This document shows, piece after piece, positions 790 through 10,152 of a stretch of 10,310 nucleotides of DNA; within the stretch, counting starts at the first letter, position 1; each line of letters begins with the position of its first letter. The translations under genes and the position numbers were made by a program. The notes under the pieces are model-generated. The model was given only the letters and a program-made list of their open reading frames with translations, did not search any database and was not told where the DNA came from. The stretch covers positions 6,347 through 16,656 of the forward strand of contig JAMCYN010000067.1 of the NCBI GenBank assembly GCA_023474015.1. Direction: 5' to 3'. This stretch comes from Armatimonadota bacterium. Its GTDB lineage: Bacteria > Armatimonadota > UBA5829.

Positions 790-2205
790 TTACGCCGCCT
801 CGCTCTTTTTCGGTTCGGCCTGAAGTTGAGCTATGAACAGCTCGACCAGTTCGGGGTCGAACTGCGTCCCGGCTCCGCGCCTGAGTTCGTCTAACGCCTC
901 TTCGACGCTTAGAGCCTTGCGGTAGGAGCGGGAGTTGGTCATTGCATCGTAGGCGTCCGCGATGGCGATAATGCGGGCGAGCAGAGGAATGTTCTTTCCC
1001 GAAAGGCCGTTGGGGTATCCTTTGCCGTCGTAACGCTCGTGATGGTGCTTGACCCCGGGAATAATCGAGCCCATTTGCTGGACGTGTTTCAGAATGCGCG
1101 AGCCGAGCTTGGCGTGGTTCTCAATCATTTTCCACTCATCATTCTCTAGTGGCCCTGGCTTGGACAGGATTTCCTCGGGGGTGCCAATCCGACCAAGGTC
1201 GTGAAGAAGCGCGGCGGCTCGTAGATTGCTAATTTCCTCAGCCGACATTCCCAGGCCTTCACCCACGGCGATTGACATTTGCATGACGGCGGTGGAGTGT
1301 CCTCGCATGTGACTGTCCTTGGCGTCCGCGGCGGCGGCGAGCGCCTCTATTGCCTCCATGTCTTCCTCGTAAAGAAGGGGTTTCACATGGCTGGCAGTGG
1401 CGCGGTAGGAACGATGGCATTCCTCCTCATAGATAAAGCAATGGTTCTTGCCGCGCTGTTTGGCATAGTAGAGGGCCGCGTCGGCGTTTAGGACCAGACC
1501 GTGATGGGTTTGGCCGTGCTGTGGATAGCTTGCGACTCCCGCGCTGACCGTGGTTACCTTGTTTTGACCGAATGCAATCTGGCTGTGCTTCTGGGTGGCC
1601 TGACGGATACGCTCCGCAACCTCCAAGGCCTCTTTGGAATCCGTTTCCGGAAGTATGACCACAAACTCCTCGCCGCCGTAGCGCGCGAGAACATCAATGT
1701 TGCGGATGCACTTGTCGCATATAGCCCCGAACCACTTAAGTAGCCTGTCGCCTTCCTGGTGACCCCAGGTGTCGTTGAAGCTCTTGAAGTTATCCAGGTC
1801 CAACATTATGACCGAAAGAGTGTGATCATAGCGTGATGCTCTCTCGATTTCCGCGCAGAGCCTCTCCTGGAAGTAACGGTGGTTGTATATCTCGGTAACA
1901 CCGTCGATGTTGGCTCTGAGTTCGGCTTTTCGCCGGTGGTAGACTTCCTGGTCGAAGAGATGGCCTATCACTCCGGCGATGCTGATGCAAATTGCCTGCC
2001 AGATGAAAAACGAGATCGAGTGGCTCTGGAATGAGTCGAACAGGTCCCGAAGGAGTGTCTTGTAAAGCTCGATGTCGCCCCAACTGGCGGACTCCATGCC
2101 GAAAGCCAGGAGCCCGACTATGTAAGAGGTCGTGGCGAAAAGGAATCCACCGAAGTAGAAGATTAAGCGGTATTTGAGGCCGAGTCTCGTTTTGCTGCCG
2201 GTCAT
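790..2205 (-). CDS. Membrane-anchored GGDEF/HD-GYP bifunctional c-di-GMP protein
   Basis: The 471-residue protein joins a diguanylate cyclase (2 GTP to c-di-GMP) to an HD-GYP phosphodiesterase that degrades c-di-GMP. I chose the ATG at 2205-2203 because AAGGAG lies 5 bases upstream; the frame stays open 25 codons further, to 2280, but the extra residues look non-native. Two membrane helices (about 12-35 and 63-84) enclose a loop of about 27 residues, too short for a classical sensor domain. The GGDEF domain spans about 97-258: the metal-site segment DLDNFKSFND starts at D136, the active-site motif is GGEEF (177-181), and a product-inhibition I-site RNID (168-171) lies five residues before it. 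The HD-GYP domain spans about 290-465: H303, HD at 335-336, H364, HHHE at 387-390 and GYP at 396-398. All key residues of both halves are present, so both could be active. It is a single gene, divergent from the c-di-AMP-riboswitch operon. The input signal is unknown. Confidence 0.93.
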   Translation of the reverse strand: MTGSKTRLGLKYRLIFYFGGFLFATTSYIVGLLAFGMESASWGDIELYKTLLRDLFDSFQSHSISFFIWQAICISIAGVIGHLFDQEVYHRRKAELRANIDGVTEIYNHRYFQERLCAEIERASRYDHTLSVIMLDLDNFKSFNDTWGHQEGDRLLKWFGAICDKCIRNIDVLARYGGEEFVVILPETDSKEALEVAERIRQATQKHSQIAFGQNKVTTVSAGVASYPQHGQTHHGLVLNADAALYYAKQRGKNHCFIYEEECHRSYRATASHVKPLLYEEDMEAIEALAAAADAKDSHMRGHSTAVMQMSIAVGEGLGMSAEEISNLRAAALLHDLGRIGTPEEILSKPGPLENDEWKMIENHAKLGSRILKHVQQMGSIIPGVKHHHERYDGKGYPNGLSGKNIPLLARIIAIADAYDAMTNSRSYRKALSVEEALDELRRGAGTQFDPELVELFIAQLQAEPKKSEAA

Positions 2206-2393: not shown

Positions 2394-2423
2394 TTGACAA
2401 GGCAGCTTGGCTGCGTCTATAAT
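2394..2423 (+). promoter_or_regulatory. Sigma-70-type promoter for the riboswitch/nuclease operon
   Basis: A perfect -35 hexamer TTGACA (2394-2399) and a perfect -10 TATAAT (2418-2423) are separated by 18 bases. Transcription would start near 2430, leaving a leader of about 235 bases before the terminator tract. A short hairpin, GAGG/CCTC, starts at 2431. The position just ahead of the riboswitch supports the call. The AT-rich interval 2206-2393 upstream should hold the promoter of the divergent GGDEF/HD-GYP gene, but I saw no clear -35/-10 pair for it. Confidence 0.85.
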
Positions 2424-2502
2424 AACGGATGAGGTGAAATACGCCTCTCCGATACCACACAACTGCAACCTTACAACCGAATACATAACCTAATAAACAA
2501 CA

Positions 2503-2624
2503 TAGCGCCGAGTCTCTTTAAGAGAGCGGAGGACCCGACCCTTTAAGGGGGCAAATCCGGAAACGGAGGGGGTCCTTCCTACCCTAGCCCGACAGCTAAC
2601 TCCGCAGGCGTGGAAGGAAGATAC
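2503..2624 (+). ncRNA. c-di-AMP riboswitch (ydaO/yuaA class)
   Basis: The conserved blocks of the ydaO/yuaA aptamer appear in the right order. These are GCGCCGAGTCT (about 2505-2515), a CTCT/AGAG hairpin leading into AGAGCGGAGGACCC (2523-2536), GGGGGCAAATCC (2547-2558), a hairpin with a GAAA tetraloop (TCCG-GAAA-CGGA, 2556-2567), a GGGTCC block (2570-2575) that can pair with GGACCC (2531-2536), and the hallmark CCCGACAGCTAACTCCGCAG (2588-2607), followed by GCG. The match is to the Bacillus ydaO leader as I recall it. The class senses cyclic di-AMP and usually turns genes off by forming a terminator when the ligand is bound. The exact ends and the closing P1 helix could not be fixed by eye. 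It lies between a consensus promoter and an intrinsic terminator, just before the SbcD-like gene. Genes of this class are usually potassium, osmolyte or cell-wall functions, so the target here is unusual. Confidence 0.9.
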
Positions 2625-2634
2625 CTTTGAAATC

Positions 2635-2665
2635 AGGCCGCGTGTTCACTGCTCGCGGCTTTTTT
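2635..2665 (+). terminator. Intrinsic terminator, expression platform of the riboswitch
   Basis: A perfect 6-bp GC-only stem, GCCGCG (2637-2642) with CGCGGC (2654-2659), encloses an 11-base loop and is followed directly by six T (2660-2665). G2636/T2660 and A2635/T2661 could lengthen the stem. It sits about ten bases after the aptamer and only ten bases before the ATG at 2676, as expected of a ligand-controlled terminator. The competing antiterminator pairing was not identified by eye. Confidence 0.88.
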
Positions 2666-2675
2666 GATGCGTGCG

Positions 2676-3848
2676 ATGAGATTCGTTCAATTCTCTGACG
2701 TCCACCTAGACTCCACGGTCGGCGGCTCGATGAACCTGCCCGAGGACAAGAAATCCACCCTGCGGCGGGACATGCGAACCGCCCTCGCGCGTGCCTGCGG
2801 CCTGGTCTCCGAGTACAAGGCCGATCTGGTGCTGATTCCCGGCGACCTGTTCGACCACGAAACCGTGCGCGCCGACACCGCGACGTTCATCGCCGACTTG
2901 TTCCGAAGCATGGCCCCGATCCCCATCTTCATAGCCCCAGGCAACCACGACAGCCTCCGCCCAGGCAGCCCGTATATGCCCGTGGGCGGGGTCGAATGGC
3001 CCGCCAATGTTCACATCTTCACATCAGCCGACTTCGAGAGCGTCGCTATCGATGAACTGGATTGCGGCGTGACGGGCATGGGTCACGCGCACAGGGGCGT
3101 CACGGATCGCCTGCTTGCCGGAGAGGTTGGGCGCGCGGGGAAGTCGGTTAATCTGCTTATCTTCCACGGATCGCGGGACGGTTACAAGCCATCGGAAAAA
3201 GAGAGCGTGATACCGTTTTCCGATCAGGAGCTTCTGGCCCAGGGCTTTACTTATGCCGCCATCGGGCACTATCATTCATTGAGCCGGATAACGGACCCGA
3301 ACGGCTGCGTGCGCGGGGCCTACTCGGGGTGCGTGCAGGGCAGAGGGCTGGACGAGGCCGGAGAAAAGTGCGTGATTATCGGCGAGATTACTGCCGATGG
3401 TCGCGTTACGCTCGATAAGGTGGAGGTCGCGCCGAGGCGGGTTATAACCGTGGAAGTCGATGTCACCGGCACGCGGAGCGACACTGAAATGCTGGGCAAG
3501 ATCGACGCCGCGCTGACGGCTAGCGGCGCGCGGCCATGCGACATGGTGAATATATCGCTCTACGGCGCGATCGCGCCGAATCTCACGCTGGACACTTCGC
3601 AGCTCGAAAACTCCGCGCGGTTCTTCCACGTGAGCATCAATCGATCACGCGTGCGGCCCGATTACGATCTCGAATCGCTTGTCGGGGATAACGCCGCGCC
3701 GTCGTTGAAATCTGAGTTCGTGCGTGGGATGCTCGAACTCGAGCGGGGCGCGACGGACGATGTCGAGCGGCGGGCACTACGCGATGCGATCTATTATGGC
3801 CTTTACGCGCTGGATGGCCGGAAGCTGGAGCCGCTTGATGCGGATTAA
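2676..3848 (+). CDS. SbcD/Mre11/YhaO-like metallophosphoesterase, DNA repair nuclease subunit
   Basis: The 390-residue protein is the likely nuclease partner of the ATPase encoded next to it, forming an Mre11-Rad50 (SbcCD or YhaO-YhaN) type complex that trims DNA ends or hairpins. The calcineurin-like metal motifs are complete: DVH (D8, H10), GDLFD (D57), GNHD (N90, H91), H164 in LLIFHGSRDG, and GHYH (H198, H200). About 190 residues of capping and adaptor region follow. The length is close to E. coli SbcD (about 400). The ATG at 2676 is chosen because MRFVQFSDVHLD is the normal family opening. TTG at 2664 and ATG at 2667 are in frame, but TTG overlaps the T tract of the terminator. No Shine-Dalgarno is visible for any of the three, so translation may be weak or need another element. 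The gene follows the c-di-AMP riboswitch and overlaps the next gene by 11 bases, implying translational coupling. Confidence 0.92.
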   Translation: MRFVQFSDVHLDSTVGGSMNLPEDKKSTLRRDMRTALARACGLVSEYKADLVLIPGDLFDHETVRADTATFIADLFRSMAPIPIFIAPGNHDSLRPGSPYMPVGGVEWPANVHIFTSADFESVAIDELDCGVTGMGHAHRGVTDRLLAGEVGRAGKSVNLLIFHGSRDGYKPSEKESVIPFSDQELLAQGFTYAAIGHYHSLSRITDPNGCVRGAYSGCVQGRGLDEAGEKCVIIGEITADGRVTLDKVEVAPRRVITVEVDVTGTRSDTEMLGKIDAALTASGARPCDMVNISLYGAIAPNLTLDTSQLENSARFFHVSINRSRVRPDYDLESLVGDNAAPSLKSEFVRGMLELERGATDDVERRALRDAIYYGLYALDGRKLEPLDAD

Positions 3849-6036
3849 GTCGATCCACATCAAGGGATTCGGCTGCCTGGTTGAACGGAGCTATGAGTTC
3901 CCCGAAGGCAAGGCCGCGTTGGTGCTCGAAAACAACGAGCGCGGGAAGTCCACGCTGGCCGCGGCTATCTTCGCCGGGCTGTGCGGGTTTCCGAAACGCA
4001 AGGTCGCCGGGGAGTTGGTTAAGCTCAAGGATGTCTACAAGCCCTGGAACGGCGAGAACTACGCGGTCGATATGGAGATCGAGGCGGCGGGCAAGCATCT
4101 GAGGCTCGAGCGCGACTTCGCCCGAGACCGCTGCGTCATCAGAGATGCATTGACCAACAAGGACATCAGCGCCGAGTACGATCAGGACCTCACCCTGCAT
4201 TTCCTGCGCCTGCCCAGAGACGACTTCCAGCGCATCGCCTTCATATCGGGCAAGGAGGTTCACAGGTTCAGCTCTTCGCCGAACATCCAGGCCCGGCTGT
4301 CGGCGATGATCGACGCGGGGGCCGAGTCCGGAGCGGAGAATGCAATAGCGGCGCTCGATGACGCCAGGTATACCCTCGCCGGCAAGTCTCTCAAGATCGA
4401 ATCGGCAATCTCGCGGCTGGCCAAGGACGTTGACAGCAAGCAGCGGCGGATGCGCGAACTTGACACGGCGCTTGATGCGGTCGCGGACGAAGTCCGGGAG
4501 TTGGAGCGAGCACAGGGGCAGTGCGGGGAACTGTCGGCGCGTCTCGATGAACTTGACCGCGAATACGCCGCCGCAAGGTTAAAAGAATTGCGCGAGCAGA
4601 TAAGCGCCGCCGAAACTCTGGATAGCGAGGCAGCCGGGCTCCGCGAAGAGCTTGCGGGCCTGGAGCAATTCGCCGCGTTCCCCGCCGAACGTAAGACGCA
4701 GCTCGCGAAAGCCGTGGCGCGAATCGATGAGCGCCGGGATCAAATCGCGCAAATGGAAGCCGAATCGGAGGAACTGCGGCGGGAGTTTGAGCGGATCAGC
4801 TCCGAAAGGCTGCGCGTGATGGACGGCGAGCAGATTTCGTCACGCATGGTCGGATATGTCATGCTCACAGCCGGAGGCTTGTGTGGGCTCACGTGCCTGG
4901 GGCTAATGATTCTGAAGATTGTCGGCATCGTGCCCAGCCTGATCGGCACGCTGATCGGCGTCATTGTCGCCGCCACCGGGGCCGTTCGGAGCGCGCACTC
5001 GAAGACGGGGCGGTCGGAGTCTGTGATCTCTCTTGAAGCGCGATTGCAGGAAATCGGACGGAGGCTGGCCGAGCTGGCACGTAATATTGAGACTCGAGGG
5101 CGCGATATTGATGAAGAACGCGAGATCGTGCAGTCGATTGCTCAAGACGCCGGGATCGACGATTCACCGGCATGTGACGACGTTCTCAGGCGGTTCGAGG
5201 AAATCGAGGCGCATTATCGCCGCTATAGGCATATAAAGGATTCTCTTCTGCCCGCCGTGCTCAAATATGTGGCCAAAGACGAAGATATGAAGGCGCTTAG
5301 GGCAGAGGAAGCTGAGCTTGCTGCACGGACCGCATGCACCCATAATGAAGCATTCCCCTCCCAGAACCGGTCATCGTCTTCAATCGACAGCGACCGGCAA
5401 GCCGTCAGAACTAAGCTCGACCAGACTCAGGCGGCGATACGGGACCTGGAAAAGAGCGTTGGGGTGTGCATCGAAAACTACCGCCGCGAGTATCCGGCGC
5501 TCGCCGAGGAGCTTGAAGCGCTGCAAAGCGAGATGGAGCGTGCGGCGAGGTTCGGCAAGGCAATCGAGGCGGCAAGTGGGGTTATGAGAGAGGTAGCTGA
5601 GAAATCGCACCGCAGGTGGGCGTCGGCGCTGAACGAGCGGGCGTCGGCAATGCTTCCGAATCTCAATCCGGACTACGATACGCTTCGATTCGACGATTCC
5701 CTGTCATTCACCATCAGGCACGTCGCCGACAACCGGATAATCGAGCGGGCGGATATCGACTCGTGTCTGAGCACGGGCGCGAAGGACCAGATCTACCTGG
5801 CGGTGCGGATGGCGTGCTGCGAGGAGCTATCGCGGGCGGCGGAACCGATGCCGATCATCCTGGACGACCCGCTGATTGCCGCCGACGACACACGCTTCAC
5901 CGAAGGCTTTCGATATCTCGCGCGCGGCGCAGCCGACGGCCGGCAGATCATCATCCTGAGCTGCCATAAATCCCGGCATGAAGCGTTCTTGCGCGAGCCA
6001 TGGTTCTCGGATAGCGTATCGGTTCTCAACCTTTGA
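3838..6036 (+). CDS. SbcC/YhaN-like SMC-type ATPase with central transmembrane pair
   Basis: The 732-residue protein should be the Rad50-like ATPase partner of the preceding nuclease. The ATG at 3838 is chosen because MRIKSIHIKGFG is the standard family start; GGAG lies upstream inside the partner gene. The order is: N-terminal ATPase half with Walker A ENNERGKST (31-39), coiled coil (about 195-335), two adjacent hydrophobic segments (about 337-360 and 362-383), second coiled coil (about 390-600), then the C-terminal half with ABC signature LSTGAKDQ (644-651), Walker B IILDDP (D676, D677) and switch histidine H710 in SCHKS. No CxxC zinc hook is present; the hydrophobic pair sits where the hook would be, so the complex is probably tethered to the membrane. 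It is shorter than SbcC (about 1050) or YhaN (about 960). Walker A is odd: the first glycine of GxxxxGKS is glutamate (E31). The 3' end overlaps the convergent anti-sigma gene by 11 bases. Confidence 0.88.
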   Translation: MRIKSIHIKGFGCLVERSYEFPEGKAALVLENNERGKSTLAAAIFAGLCGFPKRKVAGELVKLKDVYKPWNGENYAVDMEIEAAGKHLRLERDFARDRCVIRDALTNKDISAEYDQDLTLHFLRLPRDDFQRIAFISGKEVHRFSSSPNIQARLSAMIDAGAESGAENAIAALDDARYTLAGKSLKIESAISRLAKDVDSKQRRMRELDTALDAVADEVRELERAQGQCGELSARLDELDREYAAARLKELREQISAAETLDSEAAGLREELAGLEQFAAFPAERKTQLAKAVARIDERRDQIAQMEAESEELRREFERISSERLRVMDGEQISSRMVGYVMLTAGGLCGLTCLGLMILKIVGIVPSLIGTLIGVIVAATGAVRSAHSKTGRSESVISLEARLQEIGRRLAELARNIETRGRDIDEEREIVQSIAQDAGIDDSPACDDVLRRFEEIEAHYRRYRHIKDSLLPAVLKYVAKDEDMKALRAEEAELAARTACTHNEAFPSQNRSSSSIDSDRQAVRTKLDQTQAAIRDLEKSVGVCIENYRREYPALAEELEALQSEMERAARFGKAIEAASGVMREVAEKSHRRWASALNERASAMLPNLNPDYDTLRFDDSLSFTIRHVADNRIIERADIDSCLSTGAKDQIYLAVRMACCEELSRAAEPMPIILDDPLIAADDTRFTEGFRYLARGAADGRQIIILSCHKSRHEAFLREPWFSDSVSVLNL

Positions 6037-6496
6037 GTCGCACCGGCGCGCGGAGAACGGTTTCGCGCATGCGCTTGGTCATCCTGATTCGCGTGCCCTG
6101 GCGCGGCATCGAAGTGTAGTTCACGCTGTCCATCAGGCACTTGATGAGTATGATCCCGATTCCACCCTCGCGGTCCAAATCGACCTCGGGGGTTATGCCG
6201 TCCGGCGGAGCCGCGAAGCCTCGGCCCCGGTCAATTACTTCGACAGTCAGACCCTCTCTGCCGCAAGCGCACTTCACCCATACCGGCATGGTCTTCTCGC
6301 AGCCGGAGTAGGCGTGCCTCACAATATTCGCCACCGCTTCAGAGGCGGCTATCTCCAGTTCCTCCACGGCGGAGTCCGGCATATCAGCGGAGTGCGCAAA
6401 GTCCGCCACGGTCCGTCGGACCGTGCGAACATATTCAGCCTTGCACGGGACCTTGATTTCTATCTTGTCGCGAATATAGCTATCTCCTGAAACCAT
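6026..6496 (-). CDS. RsbW/SpoIIAB-like anti-sigma factor, GHKL-type serine-protein kinase
   Basis: The 156-residue product has the HATPase_c_2 fold of anti-sigma factors that bind a sigma factor and phosphorylate a STAS-domain antagonist. The N box is E53-x3-N57-x3-H61-A-Y, the G1 box is D89-R-G-R-G93 and the G2 box is G111-G-I-G114, so ATP binding looks intact. I prefer the ATG at 6496-6494, where GAGGAA lies 7 bases upstream. An in-frame ATG at 6541 would add 15 poorly conserved-looking residues. No STAS antagonist or PP2C phosphatase gene is in the window. The divergent neighbour, 233 bases away, encodes a sigma factor, so the pair may be cognate, though RsbW-type proteins usually hold SigB/SigF-type rather than ECF-type factors. 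Its stop lies inside the end of the convergent ATPase gene, with no terminator between them. Confidence 0.87.
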   Translation of the reverse strand: MVSGDSYIRDKIEIKVPCKAEYVRTVRRTVADFAHSADMPDSAVEELEIAASEAVANIVRHAYSGCEKTMPVWVKCACGREGLTVEVIDRGRGFAAPPDGITPEVDLDREGGIGIILIKCLMDSVNYTSMPRQGTRIRMTKRMRETVLRAPVRLKG

Positions 6497-6729
6497 CGGC
6501 GCGTTCCTCTCGTTTTGGGCGGCGGAACATCGCATACCCATTCTGTACCCCCAACGTCACGGCGCGAAACACTGAACTGATTGGGCTTGGGTATTTGGGT
6601 GACCTTTGCAGGAACCTATCGATATGCGGCGAAACATCTTATTATCGATGGTCGTCATAACACTGACTCCGTGGTCTATACAAAAGCAGCGGCTTGAAGC
6701 GTCTATAGTATTGGAAGCAGCAAAAAACT
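6497..6729. promoter_or_regulatory. Divergent intergenic region between anti-sigma and sigma genes
   Basis: This 233-base region must hold the promoters of both divergent genes. No convincing TTGACA/TATAAT pair was seen on either strand. GGAACC at 6611-6616 resembles an ECF-type -35 element, but the expected -10 motif about 16 bases on is poor. TCTATAC and TCTATAG occur near 6674-6712, and ATCGAT occurs twice (about 6618 and 6643). None of these is strong enough to name. An open frame across the region is judged not coding. Confidence 0.35.
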
Positions 6730-7281
6730 ATGATCACACAGACGAAAACCAAGAGCGGAGCAAATCTGTTGACAGGAAGACCCGATGCGGTGGAGATTTG
6801 GCTGCGGTCAATTCACGAGCAGAATGCGCAGTCTTTGTTTCGCTATGCACTGGCGCTGACCTGCTCGGTTGAGGATGCCGAGGACGCCGTGCAAGAGGTA
6901 TTCGCGCGAATTTCCCGTGAGTGGAGGCGGTTCATGGAGGTGCGCAACGCAAAGGCCTACCTCTACTCCGCCACCCGAAACGCCGCGTACAGTATCCTGA
7001 GGGGACGCAGGCGCTGTGAGGCCTTGCACGAGGCAATATGCGCCGACCTTGCCACCGTCTGCGCGCCGGAAGTCAAACAGACCTCCGCAACCATTATCTC
7101 GATCCGCGAAGCCTTTATCGAGCTTACCATCGAGCAGAGGGAAGTCGTGGTGCTCAAGATACTCAATCAGATGACTTTCAAGGAGATTGCCGAGACGGTG
7201 GGGACATCGGTCAACACGTGCGCGGGGCGATATCGCTACGGAATCGAAAAGTTGCGCCAGGCAATAACTGTTTCTCAGTAA
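6730..7281 (+). CDS. RNA polymerase sigma factor, ECF type (sigma-70 regions 2 and 4)
   Basis: The 183-residue protein has the two-domain layout of extracytoplasmic-function sigma factors, which direct RNA polymerase to a dedicated promoter set. Region 2 covers about residues 30-95, with DAEDAVQEVFARI (49-61) for core binding and AKAYLYSATRNAA for -10 recognition. Region 4 covers about 123-178, with LTIEQREVVVLKI and the helix-turn-helix FKEIAETVGTSVNT ahead of the RYRYGIEKLR end. The region 3 domain is absent, as usual for ECF factors. The ATG at 6730 lacks a good Shine-Dalgarno (GGAAG lies 14 bases upstream); a TTG about 13 codons later has GGAG 8 bases upstream and is a fair alternative. 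No membrane anti-sigma (zinc-finger type) gene follows. The divergent RsbW-like gene is the only visible candidate partner. The stop codon lies in the left arm of an inverted repeat. Confidence 0.9.
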   Translation: MITQTKTKSGANLLTGRPDAVEIWLRSIHEQNAQSLFRYALALTCSVEDAEDAVQEVFARISREWRRFMEVRNAKAYLYSATRNAAYSILRGRRRCEALHEAICADLATVCAPEVKQTSATIISIREAFIELTIEQREVVVLKILNQMTFKEIAETVGTSVNTCAGRYRYGIEKLRQAITVSQ

Positions 7282-7415: not shown

Positions 7416-8621
7416 ATGCCGCGTTACCATTATACAGCGCAAATCGGCGTCGGCGAGAGGGTCAGCGCCGTAGCTGAAGCGCCGAACCTGCCTGCTCTGG
7501 CCGCGAGCCTGGCCGCCGAGGGGGCAAGGATCGATTCAGGTCGTGAGGTTCCGGAAAAAGCGCCGCGCATACGGGGCATCCCGTATTTCGAGATAATCGG
7601 ACTCTACCGGCAAATGGCGTCCTCGATGGAAGCAGGTTTGCCACTTGCGGAGACCATCGAGATGCTCTCGAACGAGTCCCGAAACGTCCGGCTCAAATCC
7701 CTTCTTTACTTTCTCAAGGCCAAGGTCAGTCAGGGCACACCCTTGAGCGAAGCCTTGGGAGCATTCCCCGATATATTCCCTCGGGTTCACGTAGCCGCCG
7801 TCAGATCGGGCGAAGAGGGCGACAATCTCGAAAAGGCGCTCGGGGACCTCGCGGACCAGGCCGAAGCGCTCTCGAACATGAACCGCCGGTTCGCATCCGC
7901 TCTTGTGTATCCGACGGTGATCGCGTTCTTCGCGCTCGGGTTGTTCAGTTTCAGCCTGATGGTCGTGGTCCCGCGATTCGCGACGCTCTTCAGCGATCTC
8001 GGCATCAGGGACTTGCCACCCATCACCAGATTCGTAATCTTCCTGACGAGCACGGTCCTGCCAACGGCGGTACCAATCGGCCTGGGATTAGTGGTCTTCA
8101 TGGCATTGATCCTAACGCAGCGAGAGGCCGCATCGGGGAGGCTGTGGCTCGACAGGTGGAAGCTGCGGATACCTATTCTTGGACAGATTGTCGAGAAGGC
8201 GGCGCTGGCGCGCTTCTCCGGAACGCTCGGGCTGCTGCTGGATTCGGGCGTGGAACTGCCCAGGGCTATCAGGCTGGCGTCCGAGGGCGCGGGGAATCGA
8301 GTGATTGAGCATTTGTTGAAAAACGTCTGCGCCGACGTGGAACTGGGCAATACCCTCAGCGAATCGATTGACCGGACAGGAGCAATGCCTCCGGCGCTGG
8401 CGTGGCGGATTGGGGTCGGCGAGGAATCCGGAGCGCTGTCGGACGCGCTGCTGAGAATGAGCCGCCTCCAGGCGAGCCAGGTGGAGAGCTTAGTGACCTC
8501 CGCCGCCGGCATCCTGGAACCCGCACTGATAATCTTCATTGGAAGCGGCGTCGCGATGCTGGTAGTTGGGCTGATTCTCCCGTTGGTGGCGATAATACAG
8601 AACCTGAGCGGGGGAGGCTAG
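7416..8621 (+). CDS. Type II secretion/type IV pilus inner-membrane platform protein (GspF/PilC family)
   Basis: The 401-residue protein matches the usual GspF/PilC length and layout: two T2SF repeats, about 61-188 and 265-390. Repeat 1 has YRQMASSMEAGLPLAETIEML and VAAVRSGEEGDNLEKAL; repeat 2 has FSGTLGLLLDSGVELPRAI and the matching GVGEESGALSDAL. Three membrane helices are visible, at about 163-186, 205-233 and 368-394. This protein is the inner-membrane platform that couples the cytoplasmic ATPase to pseudopilus or pilus growth. GAGGTG lies 5 bases before the ATG. The N-terminal 55 residues are short and family-typical. The ATPase gene begins 10 bases after its stop, so they form an operon, in F-then-E order rather than the commoner E-then-F. 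Secretion and pilus systems cannot be told apart from these two genes. Confidence 0.92.
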   Translation: MPRYHYTAQIGVGERVSAVAEAPNLPALAASLAAEGARIDSGREVPEKAPRIRGIPYFEIIGLYRQMASSMEAGLPLAETIEMLSNESRNVRLKSLLYFLKAKVSQGTPLSEALGAFPDIFPRVHVAAVRSGEEGDNLEKALGDLADQAEALSNMNRRFASALVYPTVIAFFALGLFSFSLMVVVPRFATLFSDLGIRDLPPITRFVIFLTSTVLPTAVPIGLGLVVFMALILTQREAASGRLWLDRWKLRIPILGQIVEKAALARFSGTLGLLLDSGVELPRAIRLASEGAGNRVIEHLLKNVCADVELGNTLSESIDRTGAMPPALAWRIGVGEESGALSDALLRMSRLQASQVESLVTSAAGILEPALIIFIGSGVAMLVVGLILPLVAIIQNLSGGG

Positions 8622-8631
8622 GAGGAAATCA

Positions 8632-10152
8632 ATGGCGGAAATTCTATATCACAAGCAGGGTTTTCTAGGACCGAAACTTGAGCTGCACATTGCCCCGGAA
8701 GGGCTTACGCTGGTTGGTCGCGGGGGCAAGGAGTCTGTCGAGTATGCCCCGGTGGCGGAGATCAGCGACGTAACGATCAAGCCGCGCGGTCGGAAGGCGA
8801 ATGTCAGCATTATGTTTGGCGGCGCGCGCCCGGCATGGCAACTTAACGGGCTGGCCGCGCCCGCCGCTGAGTGGGTGGAGGCCGTCATTGGTGAGGAGAA
8901 ATCGGCCGCCGACAAGCAGACCACACCGGCTTACTCCAAGAAGATGTTGATAGACGAAGTCCACGCCATGTGCTCGAATATCCTATCCACGAGCAAGGAG
9001 CATGCGGCGGTGGACCTGGTCGATTTCCTTCTGGCCCAGGGAATCCTGCACGGGGCAAGCGACGTCCACTTCGACCCCTACAGCGATTCGGTGGCGGTGA
9101 AGTTCAGACTGGATGGGGTCTTGAGCGATGTTGCACAGCTCGATTCGGGAATCAAACCGAAGCTGACCACACGGCTGAAGGTCGTCTCCCGCCTGGCTAC
9201 TTTCAAGAAATCAATCACCCAGGAGGGCCGCGCCGCCGTGCGCATGGGCAGCCGCACCGTCGATCTCAGGTTCTCCGCGATCCCGACTATCCACGGCGAG
9301 AAGGTCGCGGTGCGTATCTTCGACCCCGCCAAGGGCATCTTCGCAATCGACCAATTGGGGATGGGCGCGGAGATGGTTTCGACGTTCAGGAAAATGCTGA
9401 TGCAGCCGCAGGGCACCATCCTGCTCACCGGCCCCGCATCGAGCGGCAAGACCACCACGATGTACGCCGCGCTGACCTACCTGCGCGAGAACAGAAAGAA
9501 CCTTTCGAGCATCGCGACCGTCGAGGACCCCGTGGAGTATGACCTGCAAGTGGTCAACCAGACCCAGGTCAACAACACCGCCGGGCTTACTTTCGCTACT
9601 GCGCTTCGGACCGTGCTCCGGCAGGACCCTGAAGTAATTATGATCGGGGAGATACGCGACCGGGAAACGGCGGACATAGCGGTTCAGGCCGGGCTCACGG
9701 GGCACATGATTCTGAGCACGGTGCATGCGAGGAGCGCCGCCGGGGTACTGTTGAGAATGATCGATCTTGGGGTCGAGCCGTTTCTGCTGACATCGTCCGT
9801 GACGGCGGTGCTGTCGCAGAGACTGGTCCGCACGATCTGTAAGTCGTGCGCCAAAGATTGCGTGCCGACGGACGAGGAGCGCGAGAGGTTCGGCCTTAAG
9901 GGCAGCGACAGGTTCTATACGGGCCGGGGCTGCGAGAAGTGCGATCATACGGGATACTCGGGCCGAACGGGCATTTTCCAGCTCGCGCCGATAAGCGACG
10001 CCGTGCGCGACATGGTCCTCAGGCGGTGTTCGCTTGGCGAGCTCGAAACCCAGTTCGGACAAGAGCAGATCGGGACCATGCTCAAGGATGGGTTGGAAAA
10101 GGCCGGGTCGGGGATCACGACTCTGGAGGAACTGACCAGGGTGCTGGGGTAA
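8632..10152 (+). CDS. Type II secretion/type IV pilus assembly ATPase (GspE/PilB family) with unusual N-terminus
   Basis: The 506-residue ATPase powers pseudopilus or pilus assembly together with the preceding platform protein. AGGAGG lies 6 bases before the ATG. From about residue 125 it follows GspE/PilB: ASDVHFDP and FRLDGVLSDV (N2 domain), Walker A GPASSGKT (267-274), Asp box TVEDPVEY (297-304), Walker B IMIGEIRD with E340, His box TGHMILSTVHA (356-366), and a zinc-binding C403-x2-C406 with C434-x2-C437. All catalytic elements are intact, so it is an assembly ATPase rather than a degenerate one. Residues 1-90 do not resemble the usual GspE/PilB N1 domain. They alternate short beta-like strands and end in a helix with W81, a pattern reminiscent of a PH-like fold (inference only). 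A region rich in charged and polar residues (about 88-103) links it to the rest. Confidence 0.93.
   Translation: MAEILYHKQGFLGPKLELHIAPEGLTLVGRGGKESVEYAPVAEISDVTIKPRGRKANVSIMFGGARPAWQLNGLAAPAAEWVEAVIGEEKSAADKQTTPAYSKKMLIDEVHAMCSNILSTSKEHAAVDLVDFLLAQGILHGASDVHFDPYSDSVAVKFRLDGVLSDVAQLDSGIKPKLTTRLKVVSRLATFKKSITQEGRAAVRMGSRTVDLRFSAIPTIHGEKVAVRIFDPAKGIFAIDQLGMGAEMVSTFRKMLMQPQGTILLTGPASSGKTTTMYAALTYLRENRKNLSSIATVEDPVEYDLQVVNQTQVNNTAGLTFATALRTVLRQDPEVIMIGEIRDRETADIAVQAGLTGHMILSTVHARSAAGVLLRMIDLGVEPFLLTSSVTAVLSQRLVRTICKSCAKDCVPTDEERERFGLKGSDRFYTGRGCEKCDHTGYSGRTGIFQLAPISDAVRDMVLRRCSLGELETQFGQEQIGTMLKDGLEKAGSGITTLEELTRVLG

What the first reader, a model, noticed from the sequence alone, without database searches (positions are those of the whole stretch)
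2394..6036. c-di-AMP riboswitch placed to control an Mre11-Rad50-type nuclease operon
The sequence shows a consensus promoter, a ydaO/yuaA-class aptamer, an intrinsic terminator and then an SbcD-like and an SbcC-like gene, in that order on one strand. Known ydaO-class targets are mainly potassium and osmolyte transport and cell-wall remodelling; I do not know of a DNA-end-processing operon among them. In Bacillus the c-di-AMP synthase DisA scans DNA and stops making c-di-AMP at branched intermediates. Since this class generally terminates when c-di-AMP is bound, a DNA lesion could lower c-di-AMP, allow readthrough and induce the nuclease complex. That circuit is inference.
Basis: partly seen in the sequence, partly recalled or inferred. 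Interest (0 to 1): 0.85.

Follow-up and report, generated by a model that had tools for sequence, protein, structure and literature searches.

The report
c-di-AMP riboswitch before YhaN-type nuclease operon
An RNA switch of the kind that senses the bacterial signal c-di-AMP sits directly in front of a two-gene DNA-end-processing operon in an uncultured bacterium, and the same arrangement recurs in distant relatives, which suggests that a DNA-repair-type machine can be wired to this osmotic and cell-envelope signal.

Summary
RF00379 matches window 2496-2625 at 77.9 bits, between a consensus promoter and an intrinsic terminator abutting an Mre11/SbcD-like gene that overlaps a Rad50-like gene. 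Promoter, leader, aptamer, terminator and both genes recur in two Armatimonadota genomes (L002, L003; one lineage) whose SbcD-like proteins are 52-54% identical to the window's and whose flanking genes differ. So the link is old, but not universal: L001 (63% identical) and the other 32 of 35 relatives scanned lack the aptamer.

Two corrections. The ATPase is YhaN/SbcE-type, with a predicted membrane hairpin at the coiled-coil tip and no zinc hook. The DisA circuit is not supported: the DisA linker domain is absent from 291 of 291 phylum genomes, and the single cyclase in the five nearest is CdaA. The window's own genome is not held.

Most likely, c-di-AMP made by CdaA terminates the leader; low c-di-AMP induces the operon. 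Ligand response is untested and an antiterminator is only weakly supported. I found no report of this target in the held papers.

The parts
2394..2423 (+). sigma-70-type promoter TTGACA-18-TATAAT
   Evidence: 12 of 12 matches; hexamers and spacer kept in L002 and L003
2424..2495 (+). leader upstream of the aptamer, with a small 5' hairpin and a segment (GAATACAnAACCnAATA) shared with the two relatives
   Evidence: alignment of three loci; fold. Not tested systematically against leaders of other aptamers
2496..2625 (+). c-di-AMP riboswitch aptamer, ydaO/yuaA class (RF00379)
   Evidence: 77.9 bits, E 3.5e-17; 0 deviations at 33 columns that are at least 94% conserved among 35 other Armatimonadota aptamers; one less conserved position departs (A where 31 of 36 have G)
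2636..2664 (+). intrinsic terminator (expression platform), U-tract ending 11 nt before the start codon of the first gene
   Evidence: -14.4 kcal/mol; counterparts 11-14 nt after the aptamer in L002 and L003
2676..3848 (+). SbcD/Mre11-like phosphoesterase (YhaO-type), 390 aa; start placed at the ATG of MRFVQFSD (an ATG at 2667 is in frame)
   Evidence: PF00149 49.6 bits; TIGR00619 36.6 bits, below its cut-off of 77.65; Asp57, Asn90, His91, Asp92, His164, His198, His200 invariant in 17 homologues, Asp8 and His10 nearly so; model pLDDT 86.9, the 50 Foldseek PDB matches shown are Mre11/SbcD entries
3838..6036 (+). YhaN/SbcE-type Rad50-like ATPase, 732 aa, with a predicted transmembrane hairpin (residues 337-385) in the coiled-coil tip, no CxxC zinc hook
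   Evidence: AAA_23 and AAA_27 over cut-off; hydrophobic segments 338-356 and 361-379, no CxxC; AlphaFold2 helices 337-358 and 364-385 (pLDDT about 65-73 there); Foldseek best match Rad50

Best explanation
A transcription-terminating c-di-AMP riboswitch of the ydaO class controls a two-gene operon coding for an Mre11-like phosphoesterase and a YhaN/SbcE-type, membrane-hairpin Rad50-like ATPase in an Armatimonadota bacterium. Shown: the aptamer, the promoter, the terminator between aptamer and first codon, the overlapping genes, and recurrence of this whole unit in a second lineage with different neighbours. Inferred from the class: c-di-AMP binding favours the terminator, so the operon is off when c-di-AMP is high and on when it falls. 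Inferred from relatives: the ligand comes from CdaA, a membrane cyclase tied to osmotic and envelope state, not from DisA, so the likely trigger is potassium, osmotic or envelope stress rather than direct lesion scanning. Inferred from the Bacillus YhaN (SbcE) literature: the product acts in double-strand-break or DNA-uptake processing, probably at the membrane.
For: RF00379 at 77.9 bits, no deviation at 33 conserved columns. RF00379 directly upstream of the orthologous gene in L002 (659-786, gene at 855) and L003 (5808-5934, gene at 6001). Shared promoter spacing and leader segment. Terminators 11-14 nt after the aptamer in 3 of 3 sbcD leaders, against 0 of 5 STAS leaders. Apart from the two genes no window ORF has a match (E 1e-5) among the ORFs of L002 and L003, so the unit was kept while its surroundings changed; L002 shows only 854 nt upstream. 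The window aptamer's closest relatives among 35 are the two sbcD aptamers, 68.1% and 67.9%. CdaA as the only DAC in 5 of 5 nearest genomes; DisA linker 0 of 291. YhaO and YhaN are listed as LexA/SOS genes and as a putative double-strand-break repair cluster in Bacillus pumilus (PMC3896406, passages). c-di-AMP riboswitches described as off-switches acting by termination (PMC9960051, passages).
Against: L001, the closest relative in genomes (63%, in a 10-leaf clade with the window, support 0.978), has no RF00379 at its sbcD even at E 10. L002 and L003 are 76% identical to each other, so the independent support is two lineages, not three. None of the other 32 loci has the aptamer, nor have 7 more distant Armatimonadota loci and one viral locus; some of these hold little upstream DNA (L030 none, L024 120 nt, L050 280 nt). 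In the aptamer tree the sbcD aptamers are not a clade of their own: L037 (STAS) falls among them, support 0.873. The antiterminator pairing is not better than shuffles at the usual level (fractions 0.082, 0.115, 0.151). The whole terminator stretch is not unusually stable, and in L002 4 of 40 shuffles did as well. The membrane hairpin is modelled at moderate confidence and flanked by segments under pLDDT 50. PADLOC's best hit to the ATPase is LmuB, 72 bits. In Deinococcus, loss of the CdaA homologue gives radiosensitivity without slower double-strand-break repair (PMC4401554, passages).
Confidence: 0.72

Rival explanations
1. One reading: DisA scans DNA, stops making c-di-AMP at lesions, and the fall in c-di-AMP induces the nuclease operon.
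For: The aptamer and the gene order would fit such a circuit; DisA exists in other phyla (control hits).
Against: DisA linker 0 of 291 genomes of the phylum; the only DAC in 5 of 5 nearest genomes is CdaA. MAGs are incomplete and the window's own genome is not held.
Confidence: 0.04
2. Same riboswitch control, but the operon is not a repair system: it is an anti-phage or plasmid-defence complex (Lamassu-, Jet- or Rad50-nuclease-like) or a phosphoesterase-ATPase with a membrane or envelope task, which would fit the usual c-di-AMP regulon better.
For: Best PADLOC hit of the ATPase is LmuB, 72 bits over residues 1-723; Foldseek also lists Lamassu and Jet chains; membrane hairpin; a second SbcD-YhaN-type pair without aptamer exists in 5 of 5 nearest genomes, so this copy may have a special task; other aptamers in the phylum precede mscS and NlpC/P60 genes.
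Against: PADLOC prints no cut-off and lists 18 SMC- or Rad50-like families for this protein; no LmuA- or LmuC-like gene among the neighbours that gave Pfam hits; the first gene's partner fold is Mre11.
Confidence: 0.25
3. The aptamer is degenerate or unlinked in function: a relic leader that no longer responds to c-di-AMP, the operon being read constitutively.
For: L001 does without it; one fairly conserved position departs (A where 31 of 36 have G); antiterminator pairing weak.
Against: 0 deviations at 33 conserved columns; full-length hit at twice the gathering score; terminators kept in 3 of 3 sbcD leaders.
Confidence: 0.1

Closest known systems
c-di-AMP riboswitch class, ydaO/yuaA (RF00379), e.g. 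Bacillus subtilis ydaO/kimA
   Same: Full-length covariance match, conserved core, promoter upstream and intrinsic terminator downstream
   Different: Target: known targets in the passages seen are ion, osmolyte and amino-acid transporters and cell-wall enzymes, here an Mre11-Rad50-type operon
Bacillus YhaO-YhaN (SbcE) pair
   Same: SbcD-like phosphoesterase gene followed by an AAA_27 ATPase gene; homologues are named YhaN by one source (P0133, P0147)
   Different: In Bacillus pumilus the pair is listed under LexA/SOS; here it sits behind a c-di-AMP riboswitch. No direct alignment with the Bacillus proteins was made
Canonical SbcCD / Mre11-Rad50
   Same: Mre11 fold and metal ligands, Rad50-like head
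   Different: Below the curated SbcD cut-off; no CxxC zinc hook; predicted membrane hairpin instead

Membership tests
c-di-AMP riboswitch (RF00379) | covariance-model match above the gathering score | tested here: met
   77.9 against 38 bits
c-di-AMP riboswitch (RF00379) | conserved core nucleotides | tested here: met
   0 deviations at 33 columns conserved at 94% or more among 35 other aptamers; one departure at a less conserved position
c-di-AMP riboswitch (RF00379) | expression platform: terminator between aptamer and gene | tested here: met
c-di-AMP riboswitch (RF00379) | mutually exclusive antiterminator | tested here: inconclusive
   pairing of the 3' P1 strand with the terminator arm: shuffle fractions 0.082, 0.115, 0.151
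c-di-AMP riboswitch (RF00379) | binds c-di-AMP and switches expression off | not testable with these tools
   needs in-line probing and transcription assays
Canonical SbcCD (Mre11-Rad50) | Mre11 phosphoesterase fold and metal-ligand residues | tested here: met
Canonical SbcCD (Mre11-Rad50) | curated SbcD model cut-off | tested here: not met
   TIGR00619 36.6 against 77.65 bits
Canonical SbcCD (Mre11-Rad50) | CxxC zinc hook in the coiled coil | tested here: not met
   no CxxC in the window protein; among 52 homologues one CxxC, near a C-terminus
YhaN/SbcE-type ATPase | AAA_27 domain | tested here: met
   PF13514 26.1 against 22 bits
YhaN/SbcE-type ATPase | hydrophobic hairpin in mid-protein (recalled as typical of YhaN; no call tested the Bacillus protein) | tested here: met
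   two segments in the window protein; two or more in 46 of 52 homologues, one in the other 6; helices in the model
YhaN/SbcE-type ATPase | LexA/SOS control as in Bacillus | tested here: inconclusive
   LexA DNA-binding domain in G001 and G224, none found in G002, G003, G004; no shared box recognised in L001
DisA lesion-signalling circuit | disA gene in the organism | tested here: not met
   by relatives only: PF10635 0 of 291, CdaA only in 5 of 5; own genome not held
Lamassu-type defence | LmuB ATPase with LmuA/LmuC partners | tested here: inconclusive
   LmuB model 72 bits (no cut-off printed); neighbours tested show no such partner

The most novel reading that the evidence does not exclude
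In Armatimonadota that lack LexA, c-di-AMP has taken over from the SOS system as controller of an SbcE-type DNA-end-processing complex, so that turgor, potassium or envelope state sets the dose of a membrane-tethered nuclease. The two genomes with a riboswitch-controlled copy (G002, G003) gave no LexA hit, while G001, whose copy has no riboswitch, gave three. This is three incomplete genomes and two lineages.
Probability: 0.15. Interest if true: 0.8.

Novelty: new variant of a known kind. Interest (0 to 1): 0.56.

Why it matters
The known c-di-AMP regulon is one of ion transport, osmolytes and cell wall; links between c-di-AMP and DNA integrity have rested on DisA. A riboswitch that ties an Mre11-Rad50-type operon to c-di-AMP in organisms that seem to have only CdaA would be a second, DisA-independent link, running from envelope or osmotic state to DNA processing, and it can be tested directly with one short RNA.

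Tried and rejected
DisA circuit: rejected, with the reservation that the window's own genome is not held. A small leader ORF starting after the aptamer: seen in the window by eye, not kept in L003, dropped. A LexA-type box in L001's sbcD promoter: no shared word of 9 or more with two lexA upstream regions, inconclusive. Antiterminator: inconclusive. A remnant aptamer in L001: none at E 10. One search read the window row from the wrong file, so its window figures were discarded and the analysis repeated. In one search the entry for L095 was overwritten by a reverse-strand ORF and is not used.
Full report
What is there. The window holds one Rfam match at gathering threshold, RF00379 at 2496-2625 (+), 77.9 bits, full length. 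It follows a perfect TTGACA-18-TATAAT and is followed by a GC-rich hairpin with six T (2636-2664, -14.4 kcal/mol) that the tool's scan did not list because its loop is too long. The ORFs behind it are a PF00149 phosphoesterase (2676-3848) and an AAA_23/AAA_27 ATPase (3838-6036) overlapping by 11 nt. The nearest named homologues are from Armatimonadota; the window's own genome is not held.

Is the linkage real? A genome scan with a profile of the SbcD-like protein gave 35 loci. I scanned all 35 with Rfam: RF00379 is present in 2, L002 and L003, in both directly before the orthologous gene. L001, 63% identical to the window protein, has none, even at E 10, nor has L004 (37%). Seven further, more distant Armatimonadota loci and one viral locus have none in the stretch held. 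L002 and L003 are 52-54% identical to the window protein and 76% to each other, so there are two lineages with the arrangement. In these three leaders the promoter hexamers and spacer, a leader segment, the aptamer core and a terminator 11-14 nt after the aptamer are kept. Apart from the two genes, no window ORF has a match among those of L002 and L003 at E 1e-5. In the protein tree the window groups with L001 (10 leaves, support 0.978) and apart from L002 and L003, so the simplest history is an old association lost in L001; two gains are not excluded. The window aptamer is closest to the two sbcD aptamers among 35 (68.1% and 67.9%, next 64.5%), but a STAS-gene aptamer (L037) falls within their clade (support 0.873), so aptamer descent is only roughly tied to the gene.

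What the genes are. The first protein has the Mre11 metal ligands, a confident model (pLDDT 86.9) and Mre11/SbcD entries as its 50 listed PDB matches, but stays below the curated SbcD cut-off. The second has a Rad50-like head, best PDB match Rad50, an AAA_27 domain, no CxxC hook, and two hydrophobic segments in the middle; of 52 homologues 46 have at least two such segments and 6 have one. The model places them as helices 337-358 and 364-385 at the coiled-coil tip, at moderate confidence with disordered flanks. This is YhaN-like. No direct alignment with Bacillus YhaN was made. PADLOC's best hit is LmuB at 72 bits among 18 SMC/Rad50-like families, so a defence role is a live rival. In Bacillus pumilus yhaO and yhaN are listed under LexA/SOS and called a putative double-strand-break repair cluster, with a reference whose title names YhaN as SbcE (PMC3896406, passages; the cited paper is not held). 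Each of the five nearest genomes has a second SbcD-YhaN-type pair on another contig; no RF00379 lies in those stretches.

Where the signal comes from. G001-G004 and G224 each have one DAC domain, and all five proteins pass the CdaA cut-off and fail the DisA one. The DisA linker domain is found in 0 of 291 genomes of the phylum, with control hits in three named genomes. RF00379 itself is in 120 of 291. Hence c-di-AMP signalling is present but DisA scanning is not a likely source. LexA's DNA-binding domain was found in G001 (three) and G224 (one) and not in G002, G003 or G004, which leaves open that c-di-AMP replaces SOS control in the genomes with the riboswitch; this is a handful of incomplete genomes.

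The regulon around it. G001 has one aptamer, G002 three, G003 three, G004 none. In G001-G003 one aptamer precedes a STAS-type gene (L038 confirmed by Pfam, L037 and L039 by eye) with no terminator; in G002 and G003 another precedes a 292-aa protein without Pfam match, and the third the sbcD-like gene. Elsewhere in the phylum aptamers precede hisB, dapB, mscS, NlpC/P60 and opine-dehydrogenase genes (35 aptamer loci looked at, of which 8 downstream proteins were run against Pfam).

Mechanism. The class is described as an off-switch acting by termination, with a translational case in Corynebacterium (PMC9960051, passages). The terminator in all three sbcD leaders and the lack of one in five STAS leaders argue for transcriptional control here. 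An antiterminator between the 3' strand of P1 and the terminator arm can be drawn in all three, but does not clearly beat shuffles. The sign and the ligand response are therefore inferred from the class.

Prior reports. In the held papers one paper has c-di-AMP, riboswitch and sbcC together (PMC4401554); the passages seen do not connect them. None has c-di-AMP, riboswitch and Armatimonad. Searches gave nothing on this link in the rows listed (20 of 136, 1 of 1, 20 of 39). The primary paper on the class (Nelson 2013) is not held, so its target list was not seen.

Noticed in passing
L037, L038, L039 (aptamers of G001, G003, G002): An RF00379 aptamer directly precedes a STAS-domain gene, starting about 9 nt after the aptamer in L038, without terminator; possibly translational control of an anti-anti-sigma factor by c-di-AMP.
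   Followed up: partly
L056, L059, L063, L066, L068, L070, L055: In other Armatimonadota, c-di-AMP aptamers precede hisB, dapB, a mechanosensitive channel, NlpC/P60 and an opine-dehydrogenase gene; histidine and lysine pathway targets are unexpected (L059 and L066 by eye).
   Followed up: partly
G001-G004, G224: LexA DNA-binding domain in G001 (3) and G224 (1), none found in G002, G003, G004; the two genomes with riboswitch-linked sbcD are among those without.
   Followed up: partly
window 6026-6541 (-): RsbW-like anti-sigma ATPase gene convergent with the end of the ATPase gene; not present beside the operon in L002 or L003.
   Followed up: no
window 7416-10152 (+): PilC/GspF-like and PilB/GspE-like genes behind a sigma-70-family gene at 6730-7281.
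   Followed up: no
window 790-2205 (-): GGDEF-HD protein gene divergent from the riboswitch operon, so a c-di-GMP-type gene faces a c-di-AMP leader.
   Followed up: no
window 2664-2680: No evident Shine-Dalgarno sequence between the terminator and the start codon of the first gene (by eye).
   Followed up: no
L002 4493-5176, L003 9645-10328: A second, small calcineurin-like phosphoesterase gene follows the ATPase gene in both relatives (Pfam run on L002's), absent from the window.
   Followed up: no
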